From Hamadaea flava (GTDB taxonomy: Bacteria > Actinomycetota > Actinomycetes > Mycobacteriales > Micromonosporaceae), in contig NZ_JAMZDZ010000001.1 in the NCBI RefSeq assembly GCF_024172085.1, forward strand, positions 4,960,001 to 5,024,000: a stretch of 64,000 bases of DNA. Direction: 5' to 3'. A model generated the notes under the pieces. It was not told where the DNA came from. It saw only the letters and a program-made list of their open reading frames with translations, and did no database searches. This document shows, one piece after another, positions 39,571-61,295 of the stretch. Each line of letters starts with the position of its first letter. Within the stretch, counting starts at the first letter, position 1. A program made the position numbers and the translations under genes.

Positions 39571-39660
39571 TTTCCGCGCGATCATGAACTATCGGTCGTG
39601 ATCAACCGGCGTGTCATGTCCGTGGCGGCCTGATCAACTCCGCGAGTACCTGATCAACTT
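39571..39660 (+). repeat. GATCATGAAC repeat, copy R1 (class 2)
   Basis: A ~90-nt element. Landmarks in order: TTTCCGCGCGATCATGAAC, CGGTCGTGATCAACCGG, GTGTCATGTCCG, GGCCTGATCAACTCCG, CCTGATCAACTT. Its first 45 nt are identical to copy R4 read in reverse. It fills the gap between convergent stops at 39566 and 39663. Confidence 0.92.
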
Positions 39661-39662
39661 CG

Positions 39663-40970
39663 CTAGCGGGTGCGCGTACGGGATCGGGCGAGAACCGCGC
39701 CGAGCGTCATCACCGCGGCGGCGACCGCCACCCGGCGACGTGACCTTTCGCGTTCCTGTTCGTGGGACTCTGCGTTCGCCACGATCGGGCTGACTCGCTG
39801 CGGCGAGGTGGGCAGGAGTGCCGGTGGCACCACCACTCTCGGGGGAACCAGTGACTGCGGCGGGACAGGTCGGAGGATCAGTGGCGGCGGGGCGGGTCGC
39901 GGCACTACTCGCGCAGGCTTCGGCGCCACCACGACCGCCGGTGGCTTGGGCGGACTCGGTGGCTCGGGCGGACTCGGTGCCTTGGGCGGACTCGGTGGGC
40001 TGGGCAGACTCGATGGGCTGGGCGGCCTTGATGGGCTGGGCGGCCTTGATGGGCTGGGCAGAGCCGTCGGGCTGGGCGGGACAGCGATCGCCGACGGCGA
40101 GATCGGGGACGCCGGCGGCGAAGGGGACGGGGACGGGCTGACCGGACTCGGGCTCGGCGTTGGGCGTACCACTGGAGAAGGCGGGACCGGCGACGGCGAG
40201 GGACTCGCGGGCGGAGTCGGAACAACCGCGCAGCTCGCGGCGTCGGCGGCCGTGACCGGTACGCCCATCGCGACCCGCGTGACCGCGTGCCCGTCGAGCG
40301 GTACGCGAAAGGTCGTGCCGGTCTCGTTCCGGAGGGCGAACAGCGCGTTGTGACCGAGCCAGATCGCGCCGTAGCTGCCGCGGGGCAAGCCGGCCGGGTA
40401 ACCGAGTGCCGTGACCGTGCCGATCGTCGGGTCGACTGAGATCAATGCCGGTCGGCCGGACGCGGTCGAGATCGAGAGCAGCGCTCCGCGGGTGGGGTCG
40501 AAGGCCCAGTCGCCGATCTCCACCGGCGCGCTCAACGGAACCGCGGTCCGGGCCAGTCCGGCGATCTGCACCGTGACCAGGTCGTTTCCGCTCAGCAGGA
40601 GCAGTCCTCCGGCATGCGCGGTGCCGACGAAGACGTCGCCGAGGCCGCGCGCGGTGCCGAGCACGCTGATCTGCCCAAGCGCGGAGATGCGCACGAACTG
40701 TGCCCGCGCCCCCACGGGCTGTGCGATGCCGTAGAGCGAGTTGTCGTCGTCGCGGCCGATCGCGTTGATCCGCTGGGGGAGGACTCGGATCGACATCGGT
40801 ACGCCGTCCACCCCGACGGTGACTAATGTGGACGGCCCGGTGGCGGCGGTACGCACCTGAACCGCGCCGCACGAACTCACCGCTTCGGGTCCGGCGGCCC
40901 TCATGGCGGCCAGCCCGACCAGCGGAATCGCCCCAGCCACGGCGTACGCGATCACCCGCATGACGAGCAC
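39663..40970 (-). CDS. Secreted DUF6923-type propeller protein with Pro/Ser-rich stalk
   Basis: 435 residues. An N-terminal signal or anchor segment (VIAYAVAGAIPLVGLAAM) precedes a propeller-like domain (~35-245) with the DUF6923 hallmarks SLYGIAQPVG, ISALGQISVLG and ISVDPTIGTVTALG. Then ~150 residues of Pro-Ser repeats (PSPSP, PPSPS) and a C-terminal helix (VAVAAAVMTLGAVLA) followed by RSRTRTR. That is the layout of a wall-spanning stalk with membrane anchor. The stalk is encoded by tandem 18-nt repeats and is prone to length change. Start GTG 40970 or ATG 40961. The stop lies directly at the R1 repeat. Confidence 0.8.
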   Translation of the reverse strand: MLVMRVIAYAVAGAIPLVGLAAMRAAGPEAVSSCGAVQVRTAATGPSTLVTVGVDGVPMSIRVLPQRINAIGRDDDNSLYGIAQPVGARAQFVRISALGQISVLGTARGLGDVFVGTAHAGGLLLLSGNDLVTVQIAGLARTAVPLSAPVEIGDWAFDPTRGALLSISTASGRPALISVDPTIGTVTALGYPAGLPRGSYGAIWLGHNALFALRNETGTTFRVPLDGHAVTRVAMGVPVTAADAASCAVVPTPPASPSPSPVPPSPVVRPTPSPSPVSPSPSPSPPASPISPSAIAVPPSPTALPSPSRPPSPSRPPSPSSLPSPPSPPKAPSPPEPPSPPKPPAVVVAPKPARVVPRPAPPPLILRPVPPQSLVPPRVVVPPALLPTSPQRVSPIVANAESHEQERERSRRRVAVAAAVMTLGAVLARSRTRTR

Positions 40971-40990
40971 AACGCCGCCCGTTACGAGGC

Positions 40991-41800
40991 GTGACGGACG
41001 CCGTTCTGGTCTACGTGGGACTGATCTTCGGAGGCATCCTGGTCGCCGTCGTCACGGCACTCGTCGCGGCCGGCATCGTCATCGTCGTCCAGCGGTTCAC
41101 CGACGCAGCCCGGGAACGGCACGACGGTTACGTCGACGCCATCGGCATGGTGTTCGCCGTCGTCGGCGTCCTGTACGCCATCGTGCTGGCCTTCGTCGTC
41201 ATCACCGTCTGGGACCAGATGGGCTCCGCCCGCCAGGACTCCTTCACCGAAGCCACCGCGCTCGTCGACGTCTACGCGTACGCCGAGAACGTCCAGGACC
41301 CGGCCCGCTCCGAGATCCAGCTGCTCGCCCGCTCGTACGCCGAACAGGTCATCCGGGACGAATGGCCGGCCATGCAACACCACGAGTCAGTCCCGCTCAA
41401 CGGCTGGAACACGCTCGACCGGCTCCGCGAGGCGGTGCGCGGCACCGGCCCGCACGCCGACGCGTCCGACGCCACAGTCGACTCCTACGAAGCCGCGATG
41501 AACGCCCTCACGACCGCCTCCGAAGCCCGCACCGCCCGCGCCACCGCCTCCACGCGCGGACTCCCGCTCGTGATGTGGTTCCTGCTCGTCGGCGGCGGCC
41601 TGCTGACCATCGCCTTCGCGTACCTGTTCGACATCGCCGGGCTCGTGTCCCAACTTATCTTCACCGTCGGGCTCACGGTCATGGTCGTCCTGCTGTTGTA
41701 CGCCGTCTACCAGCTCGAATACCCGTTCGCGCGGGGGGAGCGGATCGAAGCTGACGCGTTCCGGTTCGCCCTCGCGCGGTTCGCCCAGCTGTCTGGCTAG
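40991..41800 (+). CDS. DUF4239 membrane protein
   Basis: 269 residues. Two N-terminal helices (~5-33, ~50-75: GMVFAVVGVLYAIVLAFVVIT), a cytoplasmic helical region (~78-190), and two C-terminal helices (~193-215, ~218-243). This matches DUF4239, distantly related to bestrophin-type channels. Function unknown. GTG 40991 lies 20 bp from the divergent DUF6923 gene, so their promoters overlap. Confidence 0.85.
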   Translation: MTDAVLVYVGLIFGGILVAVVTALVAAGIVIVVQRFTDAARERHDGYVDAIGMVFAVVGVLYAIVLAFVVITVWDQMGSARQDSFTEATALVDVYAYAENVQDPARSEIQLLARSYAEQVIRDEWPAMQHHESVPLNGWNTLDRLREAVRGTGPHADASDATVDSYEAAMNALTTASEARTARATASTRGLPLVMWFLLVGGGLLTIAFAYLFDIAGLVSQLIFTVGLTVMVVLLLYAVYQLEYPFARGERIEADAFRFALARFAQLSG

Positions 41801-41811
41801 CCCCCTTCCCG

Positions 41812-41877
41812 CTCGCCCCGCTCGCCCGCGCTCGCCCCGCTCGCCCGCGCTCGCCCCGCTCGCCCGCGCTCGCCCCG
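41812..41877. repeat. 19-nt tandem repeat beside R2
   Basis: Three and a half copies of CTCGCCCCGCTCGCCCGCG (41812-41830, 41831-41849, 41850-41868, partial to 41877). It abuts the left edge of repeat copy R2. Confidence 0.93.
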
Positions 41878-41880
41878 CTT

Positions 41881-41970
41881 TGTCTGCGCGATCATGAACT
41901 TATGGTCGTGATCGACCGGTGTGTCGTGTCCGTAGCGGCCTGATCAACTCCGTAAGCGGGTGATCGACTT
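41881..41970 (+). repeat. GATCATGAAC repeat, copy R2 (class 2)
   Basis: Same order as R1: GCGCGATCATGAACTTATGG, TCGTGATCGACCGG, GTGTCGTGTCCG, GGCCTGATCAACTCCG, GGGTGATCGACTT. It sits between convergent stops at 41800 and 41991. Confidence 0.9.
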
Positions 41971-41990
41971 CGCCGGCGCCGAGGGTGCGG

Positions 41991-42671
41991 TCAGCGGACC
42001 CGATCGGGATCGGGCGTCTCCGCCAGGGACTCGGCCGTGACGGGATGCCGAATGCCGGGATGGGCCTCCGGGAGCGCCTTCCGCAGAACCACCCAGCTCA
42101 ACGCCAGGCAGGCGGCGACCAGCGGCCAGGTCAGCGCGGCCTGCGTCAAGCCGAGAGCGGTGGTCGCATCGGCGAGCCAGAGCGGGGTGAAGACCGCGAT
42201 GCGGACGGCGTACTGGCCGACCCAGATCCAGCTCGCGCGCTGATATCCACGCAGCAGCCAAGGGTCCCTCCGCCAGCGCGTCTTCTGCCCGAGGGCGGTG
42301 CCCACGACGACACCCAGCAACGGCCACCGGGCGACGATGCTCACCGACCAGGCGAGCGCGCTGACCACATTGCTGGCCAGCCGGGCCAGGAAGAAGTCCG
42401 AGCCGCGTCCGGTGTAGAGCGCGATCGTGGCGGCCACCCCGACGCCGAGCGCGCCGAGCAGGACAGCCGTGAGCTTCCCACCGCGCCGCCAGCGCCACAG
42501 CCCCACACCGATGGTGGCGACGCCGGCAGCGATCGCCCCCCACGCGATGGACTTGCCGCCGACGAGATACCCGGCCACGTACGCCAGCGGCCCGACGCTC
42601 GCGTCCACCGCACCGCGATAGCCGCCGAGCACGTCGTGCAGGGATTCCTGCCTTGCCTCGCTGTCGTTCAT
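41991..42671 (-). CDS. DUF3159 family membrane protein
   Basis: 226 residues with about six membrane helices. N-terminal cytoplasmic LHDVLGGYRGAVDASVGPLAY is typical of DUF3159, and TRWRRDPWLLRGYQRASWIWVGQYAVR is the conserved central motif. Function unknown; it is frequently near RNA- or nucleotide-metabolism genes in actinobacteria. ATG 42671 has GAGG at 7 nt. A DtxR/IdeR-like iron box lies 110 nt upstream, so its expression may respond to iron. Confidence 0.88.
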   Translation of the reverse strand: MNDSEARQESLHDVLGGYRGAVDASVGPLAYVAGYLVGGKSIAWGAIAAGVATIGVGLWRWRRGGKLTAVLLGALGVGVAATIALYTGRGSDFFLARLASNVVSALAWSVSIVARWPLLGVVVGTALGQKTRWRRDPWLLRGYQRASWIWVGQYAVRIAVFTPLWLADATTALGLTQAALTWPLVAACLALSWVVLRKALPEAHPGIRHPVTAESLAETPDPDRVR

Positions 42672-42780
42672 CTCGCATCCTCGGTAGCCGGTCGCCCCGT
42701 CAGCGTCTTGACCATAACCGCACCGTCCGCCGGTATTCCGCGCGAACGTGCTCGATGTCGGACCGGCCACGTCATGCAAG

Positions 42781-42799
42781 TTAGGGTAGGCTAACGCGC
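42781..42799. promoter_or_regulatory. DtxR/IdeR-like iron box
   Basis: TTAGGGTAGGCTAACGCGC matches 14 of 19 positions of the DtxR/IdeR consensus TTAGGTTAGGCTAACCTAA, with TTAGG and TAGGCTAAC intact. It lies upstream of the leftward DUF3159 gene and 18 nt beyond the end of the small membrane gene at 42817. Regulation of DUF3159 by iron is inferred. Confidence 0.55.
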
Positions 42800-42816
42800 C
42801 CGACGCCGAATAGGGG

Positions 42817-43122
42817 CTAGGGGATCTGCCGACCTTGCCAGCAGATTGCGGCGGCAGCCATCGTGATCGTCCAGATGAGCAGAGTCATCATGAGCATGCC
42901 GATTCCGACCAGCATCGGGGCGTTGAGGTTCTGTTGGTCACCGCTGCAATAGTCGCTGAAGCAGCCCTCGTCCAGGCCATAGGTGAGAAACAGCAGGCCG
43001 AGGAACAGCGGGACGGCCCCGAAGCAGGTCATCGCGAGAAGCCAGGGGTTCGACCTCGGCTCACCCGCACTGGAGGGCTCAGCACTGGGGGCGGCGTCGC
43101 CCGCCCTTGCCGGTTGAGACAT
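42817..43122 (-). CDS. Small hypothetical membrane protein
   Basis: 101 residues, not recognised. A Ser/Pro/Ala-rich cytoplasmic N-terminus (~1-25) and two hydrophobic helices (~27-47 and ~70-95) flank an acidic loop with two Cys (GCFSDYCSGD), probably extracytoplasmic and disulfide-bonded. No near neighbour suggests a role. Confidence 0.65.
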   Translation of the reverse strand: MSQPARAGDAAPSAEPSSAGEPRSNPWLLAMTCFGAVPLFLGLLFLTYGLDEGCFSDYCSGDQQNLNAPMLVGIGMLMMTLLIWTITMAAAAICWQGRQIP

Positions 43123-43164
43123 GCGGCGGACGGTAGTCGATCAGCCGGAGCCGCGTAATAGCAC

Positions 43165-43192
43165 TCAGGGCCGCTCTTGCGAGCGGCCCTGA
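43165..43192 (-). terminator. Terminator after tRNA-Pro
   Basis: TCAGGGCCGCTC (43165-43176) and GAGCGGCCCTGA (43181-43192) are perfect arms with a 4-nt loop, just beyond the 3' end of the leftward tRNA-Pro. Confidence 0.85.
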
Positions 43193-43197
43193 CATGG

Positions 43198-43271
<74 letters not shown>

Positions 43272-43366
43272 ATGGCAACTCGGAAATAGTAGCGGACACC
43301 CCCGCCCCCGCCAAACTGGGTATCCCCCAGAACTCCCCGAGCCGCCTCGAGCGGATCGACAGCGGA

Positions 43367-44272
43367 TCAGCGGGGGATCAGGGTCAGGATCGAGGCTTCG
43401 GGCCGGCAGGCGAACCGGATCGGTGCGGTCGGGTGCGTACCGAGGCCCGCACTCACGTGCAGCCACGCGTCGGTTCCGAGCCAGCGGTGCAGGCCCCGGG
43501 CCATGCTCCGGTCCAGGCCGCAGTTGGTCACCAGGGCGCCTACGCCGGGTACGCGTACCTGGCCGCCGTGGGTGTGCCCGGCGAGGAGGAGGTCGCAGCC
43601 GTCGGCTGCCAGCTCGTCGAGTACGCGGGGCTCCGGCGTGTGGCTGACTCCGATGGCGAGGGCCGCCTCGGGCGTACGCCGGAAGCCGGTGTAGTCGTCG
43701 CGGTCGATGTGCGGGTCGTCCACCCCGACCAGGTCGACGACGCGGCCGCCGGCCTTGATCGAGTCCCGGGCGTTGTTCAGGTCACTCCAGCCCGCCGCGG
43801 TGAACAGCGCTCGCAGTTCCTCGTGGGGGAGTTCGACGCCGTGCCGGTAGGTGTCCGCGCCGTCGATCTCCGGGTCGTGGCCGAAGTAGCTGAACGGGCT
43901 CTTCCAGACCGGGCCGGAGTAGTCGTTGGAGCCGAAGACGAAGGCGCCCGGGTACGCCAGCAGCGGCGTCAGCGCCTCGCTGAGCGCCGGCAACACGCCC
44001 GGATGGCCCATGTTGTCGCCGGTGACGATCACCAGGTCGGGGTCGAGCCCGGCCAGCTGAGCCACCCAGCGCTGCTTGCGTGTCTGACCTGGCGTCATGT
44101 GCAGGTCAGACAGGTGCAGGATGCGGAGCGGCTCCGACTCCGGAGCGAGGACCGGCACGTCGAACCGGCGCAACGTGAACATGTTGCGCTCGACCAGCGA
44201 CGCGTACGCGAAGGTGGCCGCGCCCGCCACGACGGCGCCGGCGGCGATTTTCCCGAGCGAACCCATGCCCAT
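43367..44272 (-). CDS. Membrane-anchored metallophosphoesterase
   Basis: 301 residues. One N-terminal hydrophobic segment (KIAAGAVVAGAATFAYASL), then a calcineurin-like phosphoesterase domain: SDLHM (DxH), VIVTGDNMGH (GD...GN-type), FGSNDY and GHTHGG near the end. Similar to YaeI/YkuE-type phosphodiesterases of lipid-like substrates. The start is ATG 44266 or 44272, with no good Shine-Dalgarno, so possibly leaderless. Divergent from the YqeY gene across 19-25 bp, so their promoters overlap. Confidence 0.9.
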   Translation of the reverse strand: MGMGSLGKIAAGAVVAGAATFAYASLVERNMFTLRRFDVPVLAPESEPLRILHLSDLHMTPGQTRKQRWVAQLAGLDPDLVIVTGDNMGHPGVLPALSEALTPLLAYPGAFVFGSNDYSGPVWKSPFSYFGHDPEIDGADTYRHGVELPHEELRALFTAAGWSDLNNARDSIKAGGRVVDLVGVDDPHIDRDDYTGFRRTPEAALAIGVSHTPEPRVLDELAADGCDLLLAGHTHGGQVRVPGVGALVTNCGLDRSMARGLHRWLGTDAWLHVSAGLGTHPTAPIRFACRPEASILTLIPR

Positions 44273-44291
44273 TAGCGTAGTTTCTTCGATC

Positions 44292-44747
44292 GTGAGCACG
44301 CTGAAGGACCGCCTGACGGCGGACATGCGGAACGCGATGAAGGCCCGGGACGAGACCGTCACCCGGACGCTGCGGATGGCGCTGGCCGCTATCGGCAACG
44401 CCGAGGTCGCCGGGAAGGTCAAGAAGGAGCTGACCGACAGCGAAGTGCTGACGGTGCTGACCAAGGAGGCGAAGAAGCGCGCCGAGGCGTCGGAGGCGTT
44501 CGCCGGTGCTGGCCGCGCCGAGTCGGCCGCTGCGGAGAAGGCCGAGGAGGCTGTGCTTCTGGCGTATCTGCCGCAGCAGCTCACGGACGACGAGTTGACC
44601 GCGGCCGTGACCGCCGCGCTCGCCGGCGGCGACTTTTCCGGACCGGGCTCGATGGGCCCGGCGATGAAGGCCGCGCGGGCCGCGGTCGGCGACAAGGCCG
44701 ACGGTGGCCGGGTGAGCGCCGAGGTGAAGCGTCAGCTCGGCCTTTGA
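44292..44747 (+). CDS. GatB/YqeY domain protein
   Basis: 151 residues, YqeY family (the tRNA-binding-like GatB tail domain as a stand-alone protein). LKDRLTADMRNAMKARDETVTRTLRMAL at the N-terminus, EAVLLAYLPQQLTDDEL in the middle, GPAMKAARAAVGDKADGGRVSAEVKRQL at the end. Exact function unknown; the family is linked to amidotransferase tRNA biology. GTG 44292. Ten bases after its stop, repeat copy R4 begins. Confidence 0.92.
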   Translation: MSTLKDRLTADMRNAMKARDETVTRTLRMALAAIGNAEVAGKVKKELTDSEVLTVLTKEAKKRAEASEAFAGAGRAESAAAEKAEEAVLLAYLPQQLTDDELTAAVTAALAGGDFSGPGSMGPAMKAARAAVGDKADGGRVSAEVKRQLGL

Positions 44748-44752
44748 GCCCG

Positions 44753-44841
44753 AGTTGATCAGTCCGTCCCGGAATTGATCAGGACGCTGCGGACGCGACA
44801 CGCCGGTTGATCACGACCGATAGTTCATGATCGCGCGGAAA
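44753..44841 (-). repeat. GATCATGAAC repeat, copy R4 (class 2)
   Basis: Inverted relative to R1-R3. Read leftward it starts TTTCCGCGCGATCATGAAC and continues as R1, identical over 45 nt, then with a few changes (GCGTCCG, CCTGATCAATTCCG). It sits between convergent stops at 44747 and 44957. Confidence 0.92.
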
Positions 44842-44896
44842 CACTGATCGCGCGGAAACACCGATCGCGCGGAAACACCGATCGCGCGGAAACACC
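44829..44896. repeat. 17-nt tandem repeat at the edge of R4
   Basis: Four copies of GATCGCGCGGAAACACC (first copy ends in T): 44829-44845, 44846-44862, 44863-44879, 44880-44896. The unit is the left edge of the R4 element itself, multiplied. Confidence 0.95.
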
Positions 44897-44907
44897 GGGT
44901 GGGCAGC

Positions 44908-44955
44908 AAAAAACCGGCGGTGAGGGCTTGCCAGATCGCCCCCGCCGCCGGTTTT
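44908..44955 (-). terminator. Terminator of wblA
   Basis: AAAACCGGCGG (44910-44920) pairs with CCGCCGGTTTT (44945-44955). Read leftward, the stem ends in a run of six U. It begins two bases from the wblA stop. Confidence 0.9.
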
Positions 44956-44956
44956 C

Positions 44957-45247
44957 TCACGCTGTGACCAGTTGCCTGGTTGTCTGCTCCTTGAGCGCGG
45001 TTTCGAACGTGCGGCGCCAGCTGATCACCTGTGGGTGGCGGCGGAGCAGCGCTCGCCGCTCACGCTCGGTCATGCCACCCCACACGCCGAATTCGATGCG
45101 GTTGTCGAGTGCGTCTGCCAGGCACTCGTACCGCACCGGGCAGCCCCGGCAGATGCGCTTCGCTACGTTCTGTTCCGCACCCTGGACGAACAGTGCGTCC
45201 GGGTCTCCGTTCCGGCATGCAGCCATGCTGGGCCAGTCGGAATTCAT
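44957..45247 (-). CDS. wblA: WhiB-family iron-sulfur regulator (WblA/WhiB4 type)
   Basis: 96 residues. Four cluster-binding Cys at 11, 33, 36 and 42 (C-x21-C-x2-C-x5-C), the GVWGG turn followed by MTERERRALLRR. The sequence around LADALDNRIEFGVWGG resembles streptomycete WblA and mycobacterial WhiB4. These act in developmental switching and redox response; WhiB4 is also encoded next to a PBP in Mycobacterium. ATG 45247 follows a long G-run Shine-Dalgarno (GGGGGGA). Divergent from the PBP gene over 467 bp. Confidence 0.93.
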   Translation of the reverse strand: MNSDWPSMAACRNGDPDALFVQGAEQNVAKRICRGCPVRYECLADALDNRIEFGVWGGMTERERRALLRRHPQVISWRRTFETALKEQTTRQLVTA

Positions 45248-45714
45248 GCTTCACGTCCCCCCTTGCGTTCCCCCTCGCCGCCCCTGGGGTCTTCTGACGC
45301 TCTCCTGCCCCGCGCAGGGCAGGCGAACGCAGATCTCCTCCCCGTCTTTACCCCTCGACGGGCGGCATTGCTCGCCGGACCATCATGCTCCGTAGTCAGG
45401 CGATTACGCAATGTTGTCGGCAAAATCGCCTCAAACGGATTTTTCTGCGCGCTTCGCTCCGGCGTGCCATATGTGGATCTTCTTCGGCTGGGACGGGACC
45501 CGATCCCCCCGAAGGGGTACCGGGCGGACGTTGCCTGGGGTAGGGCAACCGCACACCGGGGGTCGTGCGTCTTGACCAACGAAGCTGCGGGCGATCGGTG
45601 TCGCATTTCGGCCGCGCCAAGGTGAGCAGCGGCCTATCGCCGCTCCTCGTACACTGAGCCGACCGGTGGGATACCCCGTTCCCCCGTCACTAGACCCCCA
45701 GGCGGTGAAGCCGG
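45248..45714. other. Divergent wblA / PBP promoter region
   Basis: 467 bp, less GC-rich than the coding DNA, particularly around 45405-45445. It should contain both promoters and long 5' leaders, as is known for wblA in streptomycetes. I find no clear palindrome or Crp-type site (TGTGA-N6-TCACA). No gene is supported. Confidence 0.5.
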
Positions 45715-48222: not shown

Positions 48223-48227
48223 ACCGC

Positions 48228-48271
48228 CCTCGACGGGCTGCCGCTAGAAGATGGCGCGCAGCCCGTCGAGG
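48228..48271. terminator. Inverted repeat partly inside the ATPase gene's 3' end
   Basis: CCTCGACGGGCTGC (48228-48241) and GCAGCCCGTCGAGG (48258-48271), perfect 14-bp arms with a 16-nt loop. The right arm is coding sequence of the ATPase's last residues (48244 stop). It probably terminates the PBP transcript. Confidence 0.75.
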
Positions 48272-50354: not shown

Positions 50355-50383
50355 ACTGCTGAGGCTACCTGCTATGCAGGCAC

Positions 50384-52163: not shown

Positions 52164-52185
52164 TCCCACGGTGCGAAAAGCAGGT

Positions 52186-52208
52186 AAGGAGCGTCGCTGA
52201 GAGCGACG
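52186..52208 (+). promoter_or_regulatory. Hairpin between Shine-Dalgarno and the MBL start
   Basis: AAGGAG at 52186-52191, then CGTCGC (52192-52197)/GCGACG (52203-52208) as a 6-bp hairpin, then GTG at 52221. Folding would bring AAGGAG closer to the start. Alternatively TAACAT (52209-52214) is a -10 box and the message is leaderless. Confidence 0.4.
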
Positions 52209-52220
52209 TAACATCGTGAC

Positions 52221-52949: not shown

Positions 52950-55900
52950 CCTGCCCGATCTGCGGCACGGTGGCGGTACCCGGGGCCAACTTCTGCCACA
53001 ACTGCGGTGCGGCGCTGCCCGGCGCGGCGGACCTGCCGCAGGCCGAGCGGCGGAACGTGACCGTGCTCTTCGGCGACCTCTCCGACTTCACCTCCTGGTC
53101 GGAGGAGCTGGACCCGGAGCGGGTCGGCGCGGTGACCGACCGGGTCATGTCGGCGCTCGCCGGTGCGGTGAAGACCTTCGGCGGGCACGTCGACAAGCTG
53201 ACCGGGGACGGGATCATGGCCGTCTTCGGCGCTCCGGTCGCGCACGAGGACGACGTCGAGCGGGCCGTTCGCGCGGCGCTGTCGATGCAGCGGGCCGTTC
53301 GCCGGGTGCTCGACGACGAGCGGGGCGGCGGCGCTCCGCTTGGGCTGCGCGTCGGGCTCAACACCGGCGAGGTCATCGCCGGAGTCCAGGCGGGGCTGGA
53401 GTACACCGTCATCGGCGACACCGTGAACACCGCCGCCCGGCTGGCCGACGCCGCCGCGATCGGCGCGGTGTACGCCGGTGCGCGTACCGCCTCGGCGACC
53501 CGGCACCTGGCCGGCTGGCGGGAGCTGCGGCCACTGCGGCTGAAGGGCAAACGCGATCCGGTCGAGACGTTCGAGCTGCTCGGCCTGCACGACGCGCCCG
53601 GCACCCGGAGCGGCATCGGCGATGAGGCCCCCTACGTCGGGCGCGAAGCCGAGCTGGGCCGGGTGATCGGCCGGCTCGCCGAGGTCATCGACCGGGCGCA
53701 GCCGCGTGTCCTGGTCATGACGGCCGAGGCGGGCATCGGCAAGACCCGGTTCGCGGCCGAGGTCGAGCGGTACGCGGCCGGGTACGACATCGGGCCCGGC
53801 CGGTTCGCCACCCGCCGGATCGACACCGGGACCCGGGTGCTGTCGGTCCACTGTGCCGCTTTCGGCGAGCGCCGCCGGCTGGCGCCGCTGGCCGACCTGG
53901 TCCGCACCGCGATCGGGCTGCCTGTCGACGCCACGTCGACCGCGTTGACGCGACCCGCCGTGGAGGAACGGCTGCGGCGACTGTCCAGCCGCCTCGCCAC
54001 CCGGGTGGGTCCGGAGCAGCCCGTACCCGAGATCCCGACCGAGTATCTGCTGACCCTCCTGGGGGTGGCCGCCGACCCGGCGTCCGGTGCGCCCGCGATC
54101 GGCGACGGGCTGCCGGACGGCGTGGAGCGTACGGGGGTCGACATCAAGGTCCTCGCGACCGCCGTCGCCCAGCTGCTCTCGGCGCTGACGTTGGAGTCGC
54201 CGCTCGTCGTGATCGTGGACGACCTGCATGACGCGACTCCGGAGACAGTGGACGCCCTCGGCGTCATGCTGGAGGAACTCGACGGTCCGGTGCTGGTGGT
54301 TCTGCTGGGCCGCCCGGAGTTGGTGCGTACCGCCGGTCTGCTGACCCGGCTCGCCGACGCCGAGGTGCAGGCGTTGCCGCCGCTGCGGGGCGCCGACGCC
54401 GCCCGGTTGCTGTCGAGCTACCTCCGGGGCGGCCGCCTGCCGCAGGCCGACGAGGACCGGCTGCTCGCGACCGCGCAGGGTAATCCCTTCTACCTGGCCG
54501 AACTGGTCACGCTGCTCATGGAGCGCGGTGCGCTCACCCGTGGGCCGAGTCCGCGCTCGGCGACCCGCCCGGTCGAGACCGACGGCGACACGAAGTGGCG
54601 GCTCACCCCGGGGTCGCTGGACGCCCGGCTGCTCTCCCGGGATCTGGCCGCGGTGCTCGCCGCGCGTATCGACGCGCTGCCGCCCGACGCCCGTTCGGTG
54701 CTGCGGGACGCGGCGGTCGTCGGTGACAGCACGCCGGCCGGAGCCCTGGAGGCGTTGCGGGAACGGCGTTCGTCCCGGGACGGCCGCCCGGCCGCGGTCG
54801 TCGCGGTGGAACTCGACCGGGCGGTGGACGAACTGCTCGCCCGGCGCATGCTGCGACGCCAGCGCGGCGGGTACGCCTTCGCCACCCCACTGCTGCGGGA
54901 GGCGGCGTACGCCGGGATCTCCAAGGCGGATCTGGCCGAGCGGCACGCGTTCCTCACCGAGTGGGCCGCCCGGGGGCTGCTCACCGACCAGGTCGGCCAG
55001 CGCTCCGATGCCGAGCTGGACCGCACTTCTGGCGGCTCGCGCCAGCATTCCCCGGCTTGGATCGCGCCGAGTGGCCGGGCGTTGCCCCCGTCGCTGGCAG
55101 GCTTCTCCGACGACGCCCGCGACGAGTTCATCGCCGAGCACGCCGAACGGGCGGCCTTCCTCGCCGACGCGATCCGACTGCGACCGGATTCGTCCGCGCG
55201 GTCGGTCGCGACGCTCGGCGTCGCCGCGCTCGGCCGGTCGGCGACCCGGGCCACCCACGCCGGTGAGCCGGTCACCGCGCTCGACCTGACCGCCCGGGCC
55301 CGCAAGCTCGCCACCACCGGTTCGGTGCCGCTGCCGGTGCAGATCTGGCTGGTCCACACCCGGGCGCTGCTCCAGTCGGGCCGCCCGGCCGAGGCCCTGG
55401 TCGAGGCGGAGAAGATCGCCGCGAACGCGGGCGACGACGGCCGCGCTCGCGCTGCCGCTCTGCTGCTGGCCGGGCGCGCCCATCGGGAGCTGGGCGACCC
55501 CGCCCGGGGCTCGGAATGCTGGCACGAGGCGCTGACCGTGGCGACCGCGGTGGACGCTCCGGCCGAACGCGCCGAAGCGATGCGCCGCCTGGGCATGGCG
55601 GACTTCCTCAACGGGCGGCTGGCCGACGCGGGCAGCCGCTTCACGGCGGCGTACCAGGTCGCCGTGGCCGCCGGGGATCGCCGGTCGCAGGCCTGGTCGT
55701 TGCAGAACCTCGCGTGGGTCACCACGACCCGGGGCGACTTCGCCGGGGCGGACGCGGCGCTGGCCCGAGCGGCCCGGCTGTTCGCCGAACTGCACGACCC
55801 GGTCGGGCGGGCTTGGCTGCGGGGTGCGCTCGCGTTCAACCGGCTGCTCTCCGGACGGCTCCGGGACGCCCAGCGGCTCGCCCGCGTGTTCCTGCCGTTC

Positions 55901-56599
55901 GGGGAGCGCGTCGGCGAGGTGTGGGCGGTCGGCACCCTCCGGGCCGTCGATGCGTACGCCGCCGCCGAGCTGGGCGAACTCGACTCCGCCGACCGTGACG
56001 CCCGGCGGGCGTACCGCGACTTCGCCGCCGCCAACGATCTCTGGGGACGCGGGTTCGCCCTGGTCGTCCGGGGTGTCATCGCGCGGGAGCTGAACGAGCT
56101 GGGGCACGCCGCCGACCTGCTCAGCGATGCCCTGGAATACGGCGAGCGAGTCAACCACCCCCTCCTGCTCGGCATGGCCGGGAGCATCCGCGGCTTCATC
56201 AGCCTGGAGCAGGGCGACCCGGAAGGCGCCGAGCGCGACGCCCGGCGGGTGCTGACGCTGACCCGGGCGCACGGCGTACTGGAGTCGGCGCAGGTCGGGC
56301 CCAAGGCGCTGCTCGGTGCGGCGCATCTGGCCAGTGGCCGCGTACGCGAGGCGCTCGACGTGCTGCGCCCGTTGGCCGAAGCGCCGTACGCACCGTCGAT
56401 GCTGTTCGCCCGTCGGCAGGCGGTCGCCCTGTACGCCCGGGCCCTGCTCGCGGACGGCCGACCGGCGGAGGCGCTGGAGCAGGCTCGGCTCGCCGTCGGA
56501 CTCCGGGCCGACGATGTGCGTAGTCGCGTCTCGGCCGAACGGGTCCTTGCGGCCTGCGAGTCGGCGATGGGATATCCGGCCGCATCTACGAGCCGCTAA
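52946..56599 (+). CDS. Class III adenylate cyclase with AAA ATPase and TPR domains
   Basis: 1217 residues. A zinc ribbon (Cys 3, 6, 17, 20) leads into a class III cyclase domain (~35-200). Catalytic features are present: FGDLSDFT and the second metal Asp, the substrate-specifying Lys in DKLTGDGIMAVFG, and VIGDTVNTAAR with the transition-state Asn and Arg. An ATPase domain of the signal-transduction AAA/STAND type (~225-560) has Walker A AEAGIGKT at 260-267. The C-terminal third (~830-1217) is TPR-like repeats for protein interaction. It starts overlapping the MBL stop. It should make cAMP; the cAMP receptor gene crp is 5.9 kb away. Confidence 0.93.
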   Translation: MTCPICGTVAVPGANFCHNCGAALPGAADLPQAERRNVTVLFGDLSDFTSWSEELDPERVGAVTDRVMSALAGAVKTFGGHVDKLTGDGIMAVFGAPVAHEDDVERAVRAALSMQRAVRRVLDDERGGGAPLGLRVGLNTGEVIAGVQAGLEYTVIGDTVNTAARLADAAAIGAVYAGARTASATRHLAGWRELRPLRLKGKRDPVETFELLGLHDAPGTRSGIGDEAPYVGREAELGRVIGRLAEVIDRAQPRVLVMTAEAGIGKTRFAAEVERYAAGYDIGPGRFATRRIDTGTRVLSVHCAAFGERRRLAPLADLVRTAIGLPVDATSTALTRPAVEERLRRLSSRLATRVGPEQPVPEIPTEYLLTLLGVAADPASGAPAIGDGLPDGVERTGVDIKVLATAVAQLLSALTLESPLVVIVDDLHDATPETVDALGVMLEELDGPVLVVLLGRPELVRTAGLLTRLADAEVQALPPLRGADAARLLSSYLRGGRLPQADEDRLLATAQGNPFYLAELVTLLMERGALTRGPSPRSATRPVETDGDTKWRLTPGSLDARLLSRDLAAVLAARIDALPPDARSVLRDAAVVGDSTPAGALEALRERRSSRDGRPAAVVAVELDRAVDELLARRMLRRQRGGYAFATPLLREAAYAGISKADLAERHAFLTEWAARGLLTDQVGQRSDAELDRTSGGSRQHSPAWIAPSGRALPPSLAGFSDDARDEFIAEHAERAAFLADAIRLRPDSSARSVATLGVAALGRSATRATHAGEPVTALDLTARARKLATTGSVPLPVQIWLVHTRALLQSGRPAEALVEAEKIAANAGDDGRARAAALLLAGRAHRELGDPARGSECWHEALTVATAVDAPAERAEAMRRLGMADFLNGRLADAGSRFTAAYQVAVAAGDRRSQAWSLQNLAWVTTTRGDFAGADAALARAARLFAELHDPVGRAWLRGALAFNRLLSGRLRDAQRLARVFLPFGERVGEVWAVGTLRAVDAYAAAELGELDSADRDARRAYRDFAAANDLWGRGFALVVRGVIARELNELGHAADLLSDALEYGERVNHPLLLGMAGSIRGFISLEQGDPEGAERDARRVLTLTRAHGVLESAQVGPKALLGAAHLASGRVREALDVLRPLAEAPYAPSMLFARRQAVALYARALLADGRPAEALEQARLAVGLRADDVRSRVSAERVLAACESAMGYPAASTSR

Positions 56600-56609
56600 G
56601 TTCTCCCCT

Positions 56610-57515
56610 GTGAGCACACCCGTCATCCCCGGCCTCGGCGAGCTTCAGCTGCTCGCCCGGGGCGGCTACGCGACGATCTATCGTGCCGCCCAGGGTTCGG
56701 TCGGCCGGGAGGTCGCCGTCAAGGTCGAGAATCGCACCCTCGACGACGAGCACGATCGTCGCCGGTTCCTTCGTGAGGCGCACGCCGCCGGGCGGATGTC
56801 GTCGCACCCGTTCGTCGTCGACCTCTTCGACGCCGGTGTCCTCGACGACGGCCGGCCCTTCCTGGTGATGGAGCTGTGCGCCGAGTCGTACGCCGACCGC
56901 ATGAAGCGCGGCGTGCTCATCGCCAGCGAGGTCCGCGAGCTGGGCGTCAAGCTGGCCGGAGTGCTCGCCGACGCGCACGACCTCGGCGTCCTGCATCGGG
57001 ACGTGAAACCGGCGAACATCCTGGTCAGCTCCTTCGGTGAGCCGGCCCTGGCCGACTTCGGCCTGGCCATCCTGGTCGAGCTGCGGGACCCGACGGTGAA
57101 CCTGGAGATCCTCACTCCGGCGTACGCGCCGCCGGAGATGTTCGACCGCGCCCGCCCGGCGCCCTCGGCCGACGTCTACGCACTCTGCGCGACCCTGTAC
57201 GCCCTGCTGACCGGGGCTCCGCCCCGCTGGCGGGACGAGGCGATGGGCGGCATCGCCGCCCTGCTCGAACTGTTCGGCGAACCCATCCCGGACGTCCCCG
57301 GCGCGCCGAACGAGCTGGTCGAGGTGCTGCGGACGGGGATGGCGAACGATCCCGAGCATCGGCCGACCGCCCGCGAGCTGATCGCCCGGCTCAAGGAACT
57401 TGATCACACCGAGGGCGTGGTGCCCAAGCCGCGCCGGTCGCCGGGGGACGAGCCGACCGAGGCCACGCCCCGTCGCTGGTCGCTCGCCCGGCTGTTCGGG
57501 CTGGATACCGCTTAA
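56610..57515 (+). CDS. Serine/threonine protein kinase
   Basis: 301 residues, a minimal eukaryotic-like kinase. Gly loop LARGGYATIYRA, Lys38 in VAVKVE, HRD at 129-131 (HRDVKPANIL), DFG at 149-151, YAPPEMF. A short basic tail (RSPGDEPTEATPRRWSLARLFGL) with no transmembrane helix or PASTA, so cytoplasmic. GTG 56610 starts ten bases after the cyclase gene's stop, so the two are co-transcribed. Phosphorylation of the cyclase or another locus product is possible. Confidence 0.92.
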   Translation: MSTPVIPGLGELQLLARGGYATIYRAAQGSVGREVAVKVENRTLDDEHDRRRFLREAHAAGRMSSHPFVVDLFDAGVLDDGRPFLVMELCAESYADRMKRGVLIASEVRELGVKLAGVLADAHDLGVLHRDVKPANILVSSFGEPALADFGLAILVELRDPTVNLEILTPAYAPPEMFDRARPAPSADVYALCATLYALLTGAPPRWRDEAMGGIAALLELFGEPIPDVPGAPNELVEVLRTGMANDPEHRPTARELIARLKELDHTEGVVPKPRRSPGDEPTEATPRRWSLARLFGLDTA

Positions 57516-57617
57516 CGCGCCAGTCGGGCACAACACGCCAATCGTGCGTACCGGTCTTCAAGAACCACTCGTTGTCGTGTTGTCGACTGCGGTGGAGAAG
57601 ATGGACTTAGGGCGGAC

Positions 57618-59138
57618 ATGGCGATTCTCGAGACCAGCCTGGATCCCCGGACACCGTCTTATCTGGACAACCGTGGTCTCATGACGGCTGCCCTCGGCGA
57701 GGTCGAGACGGCCTTCGCGCGGGCCGTCGAGGGCGGCGGGGAGAAGCACGTCACCCGGCATCACGCGCGCGGCAAACTGCTTCCGCGGGAACGCATCGAA
57801 CTGCTGGTCGACCGGGACAGCGCCTTCCTCGAACTGTCCACCCTGGCGGGCTACGGCACCGGTCGGCCGGTGGGCGCGGGCGTGGTCACCGGGCTCGCGG
57901 TCGTCGCCGGGCGGCCGTGCGTACTGACGGCCAGCGATCCCACCGTCCACGGGGGCTCGCTCAACGCGTACACGTTGCGGAAGCTCGCGCGGGCCGCGGA
58001 GATCGCCCTGGCCAACCGCCTGCCGCTGGTGAGTCTCGTGGAAAGCGACGGTCCGGACCCGGCGGGTGGCGGCGAGCTGCTGCTCGCCGGCGGTGCCTCG
58101 CTGCGCGACCAGGCCCTGCTCCGCGCGGCCGGAGTGCCCGCGATCTGCGCGGTGTTCGGCGTGGTCAGTGGCGTCACGCTGCCCGCGATCGCCGATCAGA
58201 CCATTTTGGTACGCGGACAGGCGCGCGTGCATCTGGCCGGTCCTCACCTGGTACGCGCGGCGACCGGGGAGTCCGTCGACGACGAGGCGCTCGGCGGTTC
58301 GACGCTGCACGCGACCCGGACGGGGATGGCGCACCAGCTGGCCGAGGACGAACGGGACGCGTTGCGCCTGGTACGCCTAGCCGTCGACCGGCTGTGCCCG
58401 GAGGTGACCGAGTCGCCGCGACAGGTGGTCGCACCCCGGCACGAGCCCGAGGATCTGCTGGCCGTTGCCCGGGGCGACGACGCGTTCGATCCCCGGGAGA
58501 TCCTGGCCCGCGTGCTCGACGCGAGCCAGTTCGACGAGGTCGCCCCATTGTTCGGGGAACGGCTGCGGACCGGCTTCGGCTCGGTGCACGGCCATCGGAT
58601 CGGCGTCATCGCCAGTGCGGGCCCGCTGCTGGGCGTGGACGAGGCCACCAAGGCGGCCCGGTTCGTGCAGCTCGCCGCGGCGGCCCGGGTGCCGCTGGTG
58701 TTCCTGCCCAACACCAGGGGATTCGGGCTGGGCGTGGCGCAGGAGGGCGGCGGCATCTCGGTACACGCCGCCGCGCTCGTGCAGACCATCGCGACCTGCC
58801 CCGTCCCGATGATCACGATCGCCGTCGGCGGCGCGCACGGTTCGGCCGGTCAGGTGCTCGGCGGACGCTCGATGCGGCCCCGTTTCCTGTTCAGCTGGCC
58901 GAACGCGCGCGCCGCGGTGTTGCCGCCGGACCAGTTGGAGGCGGTCGCCGTGCACCGGACGGCGGTCGACGAGACCGGAGCCGGCACCCCCGACATCCCG
59001 CCGGCCAGCGCGCTGCACGAGTCCGGCCTGCTGCACGACGACGGCGTCATCGACCCCCGCGACACCCGTACGGTGCTCGGCATCTGCCTGTCGGTCCTGC
59101 CCTCGATCGGGGCGACGTCCACTTTGGGGGGAGCATGA
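57618..59138 (+). CDS. Biotin-dependent carboxylase, carboxyltransferase subunit
   Basis: 506 residues, two crotonase-fold halves of the carboxyltransferase family (AccD/MccB/PccB type). N half: HARGKLLPRERIELLVDRDSAFLEL, VGAGVVTGLAVVAGRPCVL, GAG-type oxyanion loops; C half: FVQLAAAARVPLVFLPNTRGFGLG and QVLGGRSMRPRFLFSWPNARAAVLPP. Acyl-CoA specificity is not clear. Stop overlaps the biotin carboxylase start by ATGA, so they form a two-subunit enzyme. Similar to MCC/GCC-type pairs. Confidence 0.9.
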   Translation: MAILETSLDPRTPSYLDNRGLMTAALGEVETAFARAVEGGGEKHVTRHHARGKLLPRERIELLVDRDSAFLELSTLAGYGTGRPVGAGVVTGLAVVAGRPCVLTASDPTVHGGSLNAYTLRKLARAAEIALANRLPLVSLVESDGPDPAGGGELLLAGGASLRDQALLRAAGVPAICAVFGVVSGVTLPAIADQTILVRGQARVHLAGPHLVRAATGESVDDEALGGSTLHATRTGMAHQLAEDERDALRLVRLAVDRLCPEVTESPRQVVAPRHEPEDLLAVARGDDAFDPREILARVLDASQFDEVAPLFGERLRTGFGSVHGHRIGVIASAGPLLGVDEATKAARFVQLAAAARVPLVFLPNTRGFGLGVAQEGGGISVHAAALVQTIATCPVPMITIAVGGAHGSAGQVLGGRSMRPRFLFSWPNARAAVLPPDQLEAVAVHRTAVDETGAGTPDIPPASALHESGLLHDDGVIDPRDTRTVLGICLSVLPSIGATSTLGGA

Positions 59139-61153
59139 TCAGGCGGTTGCTCGTCGCCAACCGCGGCGAGGTCGCGCGGCGCATCTTCGCCACCTGCCGG
59201 ACCATCGGAATCGAGACGGTCGCCGTCTACTCCGATCCGGACGCGAACGCCCCGTACGTCGCCGAGGCCGACTACGCCGTCCATCTGCCGGGGGCCGCGC
59301 CCAGCGCCACCTACTTGCGCGGCGACCTGATCATCGCGGCCGCCCGCAAGACGCTGGCCGATGCGATCCACCCCGGATACGGCTTCCTCGCCGAGAACCC
59401 GGACTTCGCCGAGGCGGTCGCCGAGGCCGGCCTGCTCTGGATCGGCCCGCCCGCCAAGGTCATCGAGGTGATGGGGGACAAGGTCGACGCCAAGGCGCTG
59501 CTCGCCGAGGCCGACGTGCCGACCCTGCCCAGCTGGACGGATCCCGACCAGGTCGACGAGTTCCCGGTGCTGGTGAAGGCGTCCACCGGCGGCGGTGGGC
59601 GGGGGATGCGGATCGTCCGCGAGCGCGCCGTCCTGGCCGAGGCCGTCTCGTCGGCCCGCCGGGAGGCGTTCGGCGCGTTCGGCGACGGGGACGTGTTCTG
59701 CGAGAAGTACATCGAGGGCGCGCGCCACATCGAGGTGCAGGTCCTGGCCGACCAGCAGGGCGGGATCGTCACCCTGGGCGAACGGGAGTGCTCGATCCAG
59801 CGCCGGCACCAGAAGGTCATCGAGGAGACGCCGTCGCCGGTGGTGACGCCGGAGCTGCGTGAGCACCTGTGCCGGGCGGCCATCGCGGCCGCGCAGGCGG
59901 TCGGCTACGTCGGCGTCGGCACGGTGGAGTTCCTGCTGACCCCGAACGGCGACTTCTACTTCCTGGAGATGAGCACCCGGCTCCAGGTCGAGCACGCCGT
60001 CACCGAATGCGTGACCGGCGTCGACCTGGTCCGGATGCAGATCGTCGTGGCCGAAGGCGGGCCGCTGCCGGTACTCACCCCGCCGCCGCTTCGCGGGCAC
60101 GCGATCGAGGCCCGACTGTGCGCCGAGGACCCGGCCGCCAACCATCTCCCGGCCACCGGCGAGATCCACCGGCTGGAGATCCCCGGCGTCGCGGGACGGT
60201 TCAGCATTCTGACCGCACCCGGCATCCGCCTGGACAGCGGGGTCGAACCGGGTTCCGTGATCGGCGTCCACTACGACTCGCTGCTCGCCAAGATCGTGGC
60301 GTGGGCGCCGACCCGGCCCGAGGCCGCCCGGCTGCTCGCCGCCACCCTGGCCCGAGCGCGGATCCACGGCGTCGTCACCAACCGGGACCTGCTGGTGCGT
60401 ACGCTGCGCCACCCGACCTTCCTGGCCGGGCAGACCGACACCTCGATGCTCGACCGGCATCCCGAGGTGCTCGCCCCACTCCTGTCCAGCGTGGACGCCG
60501 TACGCCTGTCCTGCCTCGCCGCCGCGTTGGGGGCGGCCGCTGAACGGCGAAACGGCGCGGCCTGGCAGGCCAGCATTCCGTCGGGCTGGCGAAACGTCCC
60601 CACCGCCGCCCAGACCGCCGTCTACGAGGGACCGGCGGGGCCGGTCGAGGTCGGGTACCGCTTCTCGCGTACCGGAGCGCTGGCCCAATGGTGGGTACGC
60701 GCCGTCGACCCGGAAGATCTCGAACTGGCCCCGCTGGGCCAACCCGGGCTCTCCGAAGACCATCCGCCGGTGGCGGTGGTGTCGGCGACCCCGACGCTGG
60801 TCGTCCTCGACGTCATCGGCATCCTGCTCGCCGTCCACCTGCATCGGGTGGGCGCGGTGACCTACGTGGACAGTGTCGAAGGCTCGCTCGCGCTGACCGA
60901 ACTGCCCCGCTTCCCCCTACCGGGATCGGAACTCGCCGAAGGGGCGTTGACCGCTCCACTGCCCGGCGCGGTCGGCCGCGTACTGGTCGTGCCCGGCCAG
61001 CGGGTGGACATCGGCGAACTGCTGATGACCGTCGAGGCGATGAAGCTGGAGCACCCGGTGCACGCACCCGCCGCCGGCATCGTCACCGCTCTCCCCGTGA
61101 CCGCAGGCTCCCAGGTGGACACCGGCACCGTCCTGGCCATCCTCACCCCCTAA
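59135..61153 (+). CDS. Biotin carboxylase with BCCP domain (alpha subunit)
   Basis: 672 residues. N-terminal biotin-carboxylase (~1-445): RRLLVANRGEVARRIF, IHPGYGFLAENPDFAEAV, ATP-grasp KASTGGGGRGMRIV, EKYIEGARHIEVQVLAD, FLEMSTRLQVEHAVTE. A middle region (~450-590) precedes a biotinyl domain with EAMKLEHPV, biotinyl-Lys at ~637 (canonical AMKM is AMKL here). Together with the upstream carboxyltransferase it carboxylates an acyl-CoA. GTG/ATG at 59135 overlaps the previous stop. Second gene of the carboxylase operon. Confidence 0.93.
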   Translation: MIRRLLVANRGEVARRIFATCRTIGIETVAVYSDPDANAPYVAEADYAVHLPGAAPSATYLRGDLIIAAARKTLADAIHPGYGFLAENPDFAEAVAEAGLLWIGPPAKVIEVMGDKVDAKALLAEADVPTLPSWTDPDQVDEFPVLVKASTGGGGRGMRIVRERAVLAEAVSSARREAFGAFGDGDVFCEKYIEGARHIEVQVLADQQGGIVTLGERECSIQRRHQKVIEETPSPVVTPELREHLCRAAIAAAQAVGYVGVGTVEFLLTPNGDFYFLEMSTRLQVEHAVTECVTGVDLVRMQIVVAEGGPLPVLTPPPLRGHAIEARLCAEDPAANHLPATGEIHRLEIPGVAGRFSILTAPGIRLDSGVEPGSVIGVHYDSLLAKIVAWAPTRPEAARLLAATLARARIHGVVTNRDLLVRTLRHPTFLAGQTDTSMLDRHPEVLAPLLSSVDAVRLSCLAAALGAAAERRNGAAWQASIPSGWRNVPTAAQTAVYEGPAGPVEVGYRFSRTGALAQWWVRAVDPEDLELAPLGQPGLSEDHPPVAVVSATPTLVVLDVIGILLAVHLHRVGAVTYVDSVEGSLALTELPRFPLPGSELAEGALTAPLPGAVGRVLVVPGQRVDIGELLMTVEAMKLEHPVHAPAAGIVTALPVTAGSQVDTGTVLAILTP

Positions 61154-61215
61154 CTCCCCCGACTTTGCGCGTGGCTCCCCCGACTTTCCGCGTGGCTCCC
61201 CCGACTTTCCGCGTG
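61154..61215. repeat. 21-nt tandem repeat at the edge of R3
   Basis: CTCCCCCGACTTTGCGCGTGG at 61154-61174, a copy at 61175-61195 (TTTCC in place of TTTGC), and a third at 61196-61215 that runs into GATCATGAAC. Third instance of tandem units at the same element edge. Confidence 0.93.
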
Positions 61216-61295
61216 ATCATGAACCTATGGTCGTGATCGACCGGGTGGTTTCAAGTCCGCGGCATCCTGATCGACTCCCTAGCGGCCTGATCAAC
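61206..61295 (+). repeat. GATCATGAAC repeat, copy R3 (class 2)
   Basis: TTTCCGCGTGATCATGAAC, TATGGTCGTGATCGACCGGG, then a diverged middle, then CCTGATCGACTCC and GCGGCCTGATCAAC. It lies between the stops of the convergent carboxylase (61153) and chaplin (61460) genes. Confidence 0.88.

What the first reader, a model, noticed from the sequence alone, without database searches (positions are those of the whole stretch)
39571..61295. A ~90-nt GATC-rich repeat family placed at convergent gene ends
Copies at 39571-39660, 41881-41970, 44753-44841 (inverted) and 61206-61295 share an ordered set of blocks. R1 and R4 are identical over 45 nt. All four lie between convergent genes, at or within ~50 bp of stop codons, and none lies in a promoter region. 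The layout suggests bidirectional transcription termination, a REP/BIME-like element, or a non-autonomous element that targets 3' ends. I do not recognise it as a described family.
Basis: partly seen in the sequence, partly recalled or inferred. Interest (0 to 1): 0.75.

Follow-up and report, generated by a model that had tools for sequence, protein, structure and literature searches.

The report
GATC-tagged palindromic repeats at gene ends
Copies of a 95-base DNA repeat sit where neighbouring genes run head-on into each other in a soil bacterium, and they belong to a larger group of GATC-marked repeats that tend to keep the same spots near gene ends in related species even when the repeat sequence itself differs.

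Summary
All four copies lie between convergent genes and belong to a family ("A") of about 200 copies in an 8.86-Mb Hamadaea-like (Micromonosporaceae) genome. Of 93 copies in 1.57 Mb, 52 are convergent, 37 co-directional, 4 divergent (expected 19, 46, 28); evenly spaced stretches alone give 13/6/0. Copies carry GATCs at rigid 20-32-20 spacing, a C-rich, G-poor 5' approach, and constrained consensus positions.

Family A is one of several GATC-tagged families: 70 of 141 long intergenic palindromes carry GATC near both ends. A congener has a different high-copy family. At several orthologous gaps different species hold different families. No Y1 (RAYT) transposase was found in eight genomes. Ten paper searches turned up no description.

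Most likely: a REP-like, GATC-tagged, bidirectional 3'-end element, perhaps a pause or roadblock behind a rut-like tract. Termination is inferred, not shown; a mobile origin is not excluded. One reader detail is wrong: the 45-nt identity is R1/R3; R1/R4 share at most 14.

The parts
39569..39663 (+). R1, family-A copy between a GGDEF gene (+, stop 39566) and a DUF6923 gene (-, 3' end 39663)
41880..41973 (+). R2, family-A copy between a bestrophin-like gene (+, ends 41800) and a DUF3159 gene (-, 3' end 41991)
41801..41879 (+). C-rich, tandemly repeated 5' approach of R2
   Evidence: sequence; family-wide composition
44749..44842 (-). R3, family-A copy between a YqeY gene (+, ends 44747) and a WhiB gene (-, 3' end 44957)
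44908..44956 (.). separate GC-rich hairpin flanked by an A-run and a T-run (terminator-like in both directions) beside R3
   Evidence: sequence, coordinates; not tested for activity
61204..61298 (+). R4, family-A copy between a biotin carboxylase gene (+, ends 61153) and a ChpA-C (chaplin-like) gene (-, 3' end 61460)
61154..61203 (+). C-rich 5' approach of R4 with repeated copies of the element edge (CTTTCCGCG-like)
   Evidence: sequence
61312..61362 (.). separate hairpin without GATC edges beside R4
9616..9686 (.). GATC-edged palindrome of the B type in a convergent gap
13677..13753 (.). GATC-edged palindrome of another family (TGATCATCGCGCC type) in a co-directional gap
29425..29481 (.). palindrome of a B/C-hybrid type in a convergent gap; one edge reads GATG, so it is not in the count of GATC-edged palindromes

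Best explanation
The repeat is family A of a superfamily of GATC-tagged, REP-like imperfect palindromes kept at gene 3' ends in Hamadaea and some related genera. Shown here: a high-copy family; rigid 20-32-20 spacing of GATCs; enrichment at convergent and other 3' ends; tail-to-tail pairs; a C-rich, G-poor approach on the 5' side; constraint on consensus positions; gaps that stay occupied between species, sometimes by a different family. Inferred: the element acts at the 3' end of the gene reading into it; the C-rich tract is a Rho-loading (rut-like) stretch of the transcript, and the GATC core is an RNA-polymerase pause or roadblock (a hairpin in the palindromic families, a bound GATC-reading protein in family A), so that one copy or an inverted pair insulates neighbouring genes.
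For: 98 exact pattern hits, control 0. 52/37/4 convergent/co-directional/divergent of 93 against 19.1/45.7/28.3 expected by free length; 13/6/0 of 19 in evenly spaced stretches, p 1.3e-5 (convergent) and 0.0018 (divergent). 26 of 31 single co-directional copies nearer the upstream stop; 22 of 31 on the gene's strand, p 0.029. GATC spacing 20 (176 times) and 32 (84 times) in 93 copies. Noncoding approach to the 5' end C 56%, G 23% against C 36%, G 33% in element-free convergent gaps. Seven synteny-chosen ortholog pairs: 21 of 322 conserved-column cells differ against 109 of 243 variable-column cells. Co-directional gaps: G003 occupied in 3 of 4 G000-occupied and 1 of 34 unoccupied, p 0.0019, all three with a different family. 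A Rho RNA-binding domain (PF07497) in 4 of 4 Hamadaea genomes.
Against: No RNA data. Family A copies do not fold unusually and show little covariation. Other hairpins are not fewer in occupied gaps. 9 of 31 single co-directional copies are antisense to the gene. Family A occupies only 12 of 129 convergent gaps in the evenly spaced stretches. Constraint could also be gene conversion toward the consensus. The C-rich flank could be a by-product of local tandem repeats (repeated 9-mer in 46% of 5' flanks against 13% and 8% in controls). The A/B slot overlap with G001 is not significant within convergent gaps alone (3 of 5 against 0 of 2, p 0.43).
Confidence: 0.4

Rival explanations
1. A non-autonomous mobile repeat (REP/MITE-like) that spread by an unidentified enzyme and survives mainly at 3' ends because insertions elsewhere are harmful. 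Different species had different bursts (A in G000, G002, G003; B in G001), and shared gaps are insertion hot spots.
For: Dispersed near-identical copies; a homogeneous family B in G001 (40 scored copies at 90-100% identity of 297 first-look candidates); one gap filled in G000 and lacking the element in G002 (L226); REPs elsewhere share the convergent/3' bias (PMC3733652, passages).
Against: Positions of family A are old and shared; consensus columns do not decay as variable ones do; no Y1_Tnp in 8 genomes while the control search rang in 5 of 14; no gene flanked by two GATC palindromes within 400 bp in 1.57 Mb; no clear target duplication in the one filled/empty pair (flanks diverged, so inconclusive).
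Confidence: 0.3
2. Binding sites for a GATC-reading nucleoid protein such as Gbn (SCO1839 of Streptomyces coelicolor) that organises or insulates DNA between transcription units, without terminating transcription.
For: Rigid spacing of four GATCs near whole helical turns; GATC is the common tag of families with different arms; Gbn binds GATC and GATCWT in vitro and in vivo and its homologues include Micromonospora and Salinispora (PMC9239103, passages and section 6).
Against: By the consensus only one of the four GATCs per family-A copy reads GATCAT, and GATC is common anyway (8.9 per kb of coding sequence); the paper's passages that I saw say nothing on convergent gaps; no Gbn homologue was looked for in these genomes.
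Confidence: 0.2
3. Ordinary intrinsic terminators that happen to look alike.
For: Position after stop codons; family-B consensus with flanks folds to -73.7 kcal/mol.
Against: About 200 copies with sequence conserved within and between species, and no significant fold or covariation in family A; separate terminator-like hairpins beside R3 and R4.
Confidence: 0.05

Closest known systems
REP / BIME elements, GTAG- and CGTC-tagged superfamilies (PMC3733652; abstract and passages seen)
   Same: High-copy extragenic palindromes; between convergent and unidirectional genes rather than divergent ones; downstream of coding regions; inverted pairs; families with different arms sharing a short tag.
   Different: The tag here is GATC and lies in the paired edges of the palindromes, whereas theirs is an unpaired GTAG or CGTC at one end. 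GTAG and CGTC are not enriched at the ends. Units are about 50-95 nt instead of 20-40 bp. No Y1 transposase in 8 genomes. The word GATC does not occur in that paper's main text.
GATC-binding nucleoid protein Gbn and its sites (PMC9239103; passages and section 6 seen)
   Same: GATC as the core; several GATCs bound at once.
   Different: Gbn sites are short GATCWT motifs spread over the genome, not a repeat family; most GATCs here are not GATCWT.
Neisserial/Pasteurellacean DNA uptake sequences (recalled, no call)
   Same: Recalled: inverted pairs at gene ends whose sequence differs by lineage.
   Different: Recalled: uptake words are about 9-12 nt; these are modular palindromes of 50-95 nt. Nothing here tests uptake.

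Membership tests
REP (GTAG/CGTC tagged) | GTAG or CGTC tetranucleotide at one end | tested here: not met
   Within 8 nt of an end, either strand: GTAG 7 of 93 and CGTC 23 of 93 family-A copies; 2 and 9 of 70 GATC-edged palindromes; 7 and 21 of 71 other palindromes used as control
REP (GTAG/CGTC tagged) | RAYT (Y1) transposase in the genome (GTAG type; CGTC type lacks one according to the paper) | tested here: not met
   PF01797 0 of 8 genomes, control positive in 5 of 14
REP (GTAG/CGTC tagged) | high copy number, extragenic, 3'-end and convergent placement, inverted pairs | tested here: met
MITE | terminal inverted repeats with target-site duplication at empty/filled sites | tested here: inconclusive
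   Palindromic ends are present; in the one filled/empty pair the flanks are too diverged to read a duplication
MITE | an autonomous transposon with matching ends | not tested
   Only Y1_Tnp was searched genome-wide; genes flanked by two palindromes were sought only in 1.57 Mb, none found
Intrinsic terminator | stable GC-rich hairpin followed by a U-run | tested here: not met
   Four family-A copies, both strands: z -0.3 to -1.3; no T-run in the consensus
Rho-dependent terminator | C-rich, G-poor transcript before the end point | tested here: met
   Composition only: C 56%, G 23% over noncoding bases within 60 nt of the 5' end, C 40%, G 31% on the 3' side, C 36%, G 33% in control
Rho-dependent terminator | Rho-dependent 3' ends in vivo | not testable with these tools
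   No RNA data
Gbn binding site | GATCWT motif bound by Gbn | tested here: inconclusive
   By the consensus one GATCAT per copy among about four GATCs; binding not testable
Rfam RNA families | match at gathering score | tested here: not met
   Only three tRNAs and the small SRP RNA in the window

The most novel reading that the evidence does not exclude
A third superfamily of REP-like repeats, tagged by GATC and independent of RAYT, in which selection keeps a 3'-end slot filled while the palindrome family that fills it is swapped between species. An unknown GATC-reading factor would recognise interchangeable modules that end or insulate transcription.
Probability: 0.3. Interest if true: 0.8.

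Novelty: new variant of a known kind. Interest (0 to 1): 0.62.

Why it matters
GTAG-type REPs are usually explained as elements moved by RAYT transposases. A GATC-tagged group in genomes where no such gene was found, with constrained sequence and with gene-end slots whose occupant changes between species, would separate a mobile passenger from a needed 3'-end part, and would give a testable handle on how high-GC actinobacteria end convergent transcripts.

Tried and rejected
Rfam: no relevant match. Plasmid and phage collections: no match. RNA covariation: 2 of 17 predicted pairs have any double change, covariation term -0.43, not persuasive. Y1 transposase: none in 8 genomes. Terminator replacement: 27 occupied against 101 unoccupied convergent gaps with at least 40 nt free, mean rank 0.60 over 24 matched; 15 of 42 occupied gaps had under 40 nt free and could not be compared; inconclusive. 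GTAG/CGTC tags: not enriched. GC skew of 40 stretches gave no clear origin or terminus, so the uneven density along the chromosome was not interpreted. A loose 16-nt pattern over 150 Micromonosporaceae genomes hits all 150, mostly at a background of about 5-25, and listed places look like coding matches; only the contrast between genera is informative. Five 12-kb stretches of other genera held 4 palindromes, 0 GATC-edged, too few to conclude. Paper searches, listings only except for the two papers named; no description of the repeat was seen in them; the library holds open-licence PubMed Central papers only.

Limits of the counts. Genes come from my own gene caller, not a published one. The 37-copy model was seeded from copies similar to R1. 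G000 stretches L009-L028 and L155-L174 were chosen because they hold copies; the 40 evenly spaced ones were not. In one search three copies were called inside genes; they were assigned to the nearest gap. In one search, 46 of 97 copies from relatives could be placed on held G000 sequence; some rows are the same contig fetched twice, the script's label G2 lumps five Bin2.24 loci with Bin8.36, and the one row without a G000 copy is a 28-bit fragment. One search used pairs above 60 bits, and many of the relatives' loci were found by an exact pattern, which favours conserved columns; hence the synteny-only test, where R1 alone gives 12 of the 21 differences. In one search one G003 gap counted as empty (4726594) does hold a copy, and G001 elements in gaps without a matched ortholog are not counted. 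Of 30 G001 loci with family B, 8 gaps were aligned (L207); L236 also had both flanks matched but was not aligned.
Full report
What is there. The consensus is CTTTCCGCGCGATCATGAACTAWCGGTCGTGATCRACCGGCGTGTCGTGTCC, then CCTGATCAACTCC and a last TGATCAAC. The 45-nt identity is between R1 and R3; R1 and R4 share at most 14 nt in a row. The window lies in an 8.86-Mb single-contig genome. A 30-nt pattern from the family was found in the named species genomes only in two Hamadaea assemblies, Bin8.36 and Bin2.24 (46 stretches; records of the window's own genome may be left out there). Forty evenly spaced 20-kb stretches hold 19 copies above 40 bits, about 210 per genome.

Placement. With my own gene caller, 93 copies above 40 bits in 1.57 Mb fall 52 convergent, 37 co-directional, 4 divergent; expected by free gap length 19.1, 45.7, 28.3. 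In the evenly spaced stretches alone it is 13, 6, 0 of 19 against 4.0, 9.4, 5.6 (p 1.3e-5 for convergent, 0.0018 for divergent). Of 31 single co-directional copies 26 are nearer the upstream stop than the downstream start and 22 are on the gene's strand (p 0.029). Nine gaps hold two copies, all in +,- order so that 3' ends face each other; in eight the copies are 12-33 bp apart. The window's four gaps are all convergent; R3 was settled by a YqeY gene ending next to it.

Anatomy. Of 93 copies 79 have four GATCs and 12 have five; the spacing is 20 in 176 and 32 in 84 neighbouring pairs. The 60 nt before the 5' end are C 53%, G 22%, against C 35-36%, G 32-33% in the first 60 nt after other stops. 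Over noncoding bases only it is C 56%, G 23%, A 5% on the 5' side and C 40%, G 31% on the 3' side, against C 36%, G 33% in element-free convergent gaps. In G001 both sides of family B read C 50%, G 26%. A repeated 9-mer occurs in 46% of 5' flanks, 19% of 3' flanks, 13% and 8% of controls. RNA folds of the window copies are not unusual.

A wider group. A de novo scan found 141 long palindromes in the intergenic gaps of 1.57 Mb; 70 carry GATC within 14 nt of both ends (41 co-directional, 26 convergent, 3 divergent). The next palindromic tetramers, GCGC and CCGG, reach 20 each. By eye there are several families with different arms and some hybrids; a loose k-mer clustering puts 62 of the 70 in one connected group, so the family borders are not sharp. 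The GATC share is 42 of 85 (own genome, evenly spaced), 20 of 46 (G001, stretches chosen without regard to repeats), 37 of 55 (G003, stretches mostly chosen around copies); in other genera 6 of 7 (G030), 1 of 24 (G019), 1 of 3 (G026), 0 of 1 (G022), all from stretches mostly chosen around family-A-like hits. Family-A-like matches number 15 or more in 4 of 33 other genomes of the family, one in each of four more, none in the rest. G001, a congener, has no family-A match but a homogeneous family B: 297 first-look candidates, 40 scored, all 90-100% identical to the query.

Age and constraint. All four window copies are present at the orthologous gap in G003, and R1 and R3 also in G002, while the sequence between stop and element is largely unalignable. 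Of 97 copies in relatives 46 could be placed on held G000 sequence and 45 match a copy there, a figure raised by my choice of stretches. In 35 pairs above 60 bits, 46 conserved columns differ 2.2% and 34 variable columns 41%. In seven pairs chosen by synteny alone the figures are 21 of 322 and 109 of 243. Gene conversion toward the consensus could also give this pattern.

Slots. Over the window and two evenly spaced stretches, G003 holds a GATC element or family-A/B match in 11 of 13 orthologous gaps that are occupied in G000 and in 1 of 50 unoccupied ones (p 1.5e-9); convergent gaps alone 8 of 9 against 0 of 3 (p 0.018), co-directional alone 3 of 4 against 1 of 34 (p 0.0019). G001 has 3 of 6 against 0 of 42 (p 0.0012), but convergent gaps alone give 3 of 5 against 0 of 2 (p 0.43), so a shared liking for convergent gaps could explain it. 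The three co-directional gaps shared with G003 hold different families in the two species: A pair / perfect A-like palindrome, B / C-type, C / B. One further gap holds an A pair in G000, a perfect C palindrome in G003 and B in G001, and another a B/C hybrid, C and B. At the same time most window slots keep family A in G003. Seen from G001, of eight family-B gaps that I aligned, seven hold some GATC element in at least one relative; in one of these (L226) it lies elsewhere in the same gap, and one (L235) holds none in G000. Part of the G000 sequence used there was fetched because it holds family A.

Mechanism. Shown: family, placement, geometry, C-rich approach, constraint, shared slots. Inferred: that the unit works at the 3' end by pausing or blocking polymerase behind a Rho-loading tract. 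Two loci with the Rho RNA-binding domain were found in each of 4 Hamadaea genomes. Against it: no RNA data, no sign that the element replaces other hairpins, 9 of 31 copies antisense, and family A in only 12 of 129 convergent gaps of the evenly spaced stretches. A mobile REP-like origin is compatible with the homogeneous B family, but no Y1 transposase was found.

Against what is known. REPs with GTAG or CGTC tags share the convergent and 3' bias (PMC3733652, abstract and passages), so the placement alone is not new, and those tags are not enriched here. The GATC tag, the missing RAYT and the exchange of families at shared gaps are what differ. Gbn of Streptomyces reads GATC and GATCWT (PMC9239103, passages and section 6), which makes a GATC-binding protein plausible but untested. 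I saw no paper describing this repeat in the searches.

Noticed in passing
G000:C1:3882631-3882858 and 6640183-6640395; likewise G001, G002, G003: Two separate loci with the Rho RNA-binding domain (PF07497) in each of four Hamadaea genomes, i.e. a second Rho-like gene (open frames 645 and 439 aa in G000).
   Followed up: no
G000:C1:3881589-3881680: A family-A copy lies about where the 3' end of the first rho gene should be (inferred from the domain position; not gene-called). G002:C464 has a copy and a Rho domain in a similar arrangement.
   Followed up: no
window 41801-41879; G000 about 4726600-4726750: Short tandem arrays next to copies (e.g. many CTCCGG-like units beside the copy at 4726749, shorter C-rich units beside R2), often ending in the element edge.
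   Followed up: partly
G001:C3, the gap orthologous to R3: In place of R3, G001 has a different short tandem repeat (GTCGAACAGGACAAGG-like) without GATC.
   Followed up: no
1.57 Mb of G000: GATC occurs 8.9 times per kb of coding sequence against 2.7 expected from base composition.
   Followed up: no
G000 intergenic gaps: Palindromes without GATC edges also include repeated clusters (12, 6 and 4 members), e.g. CATGTGCCCGTGGCC.
   Followed up: no
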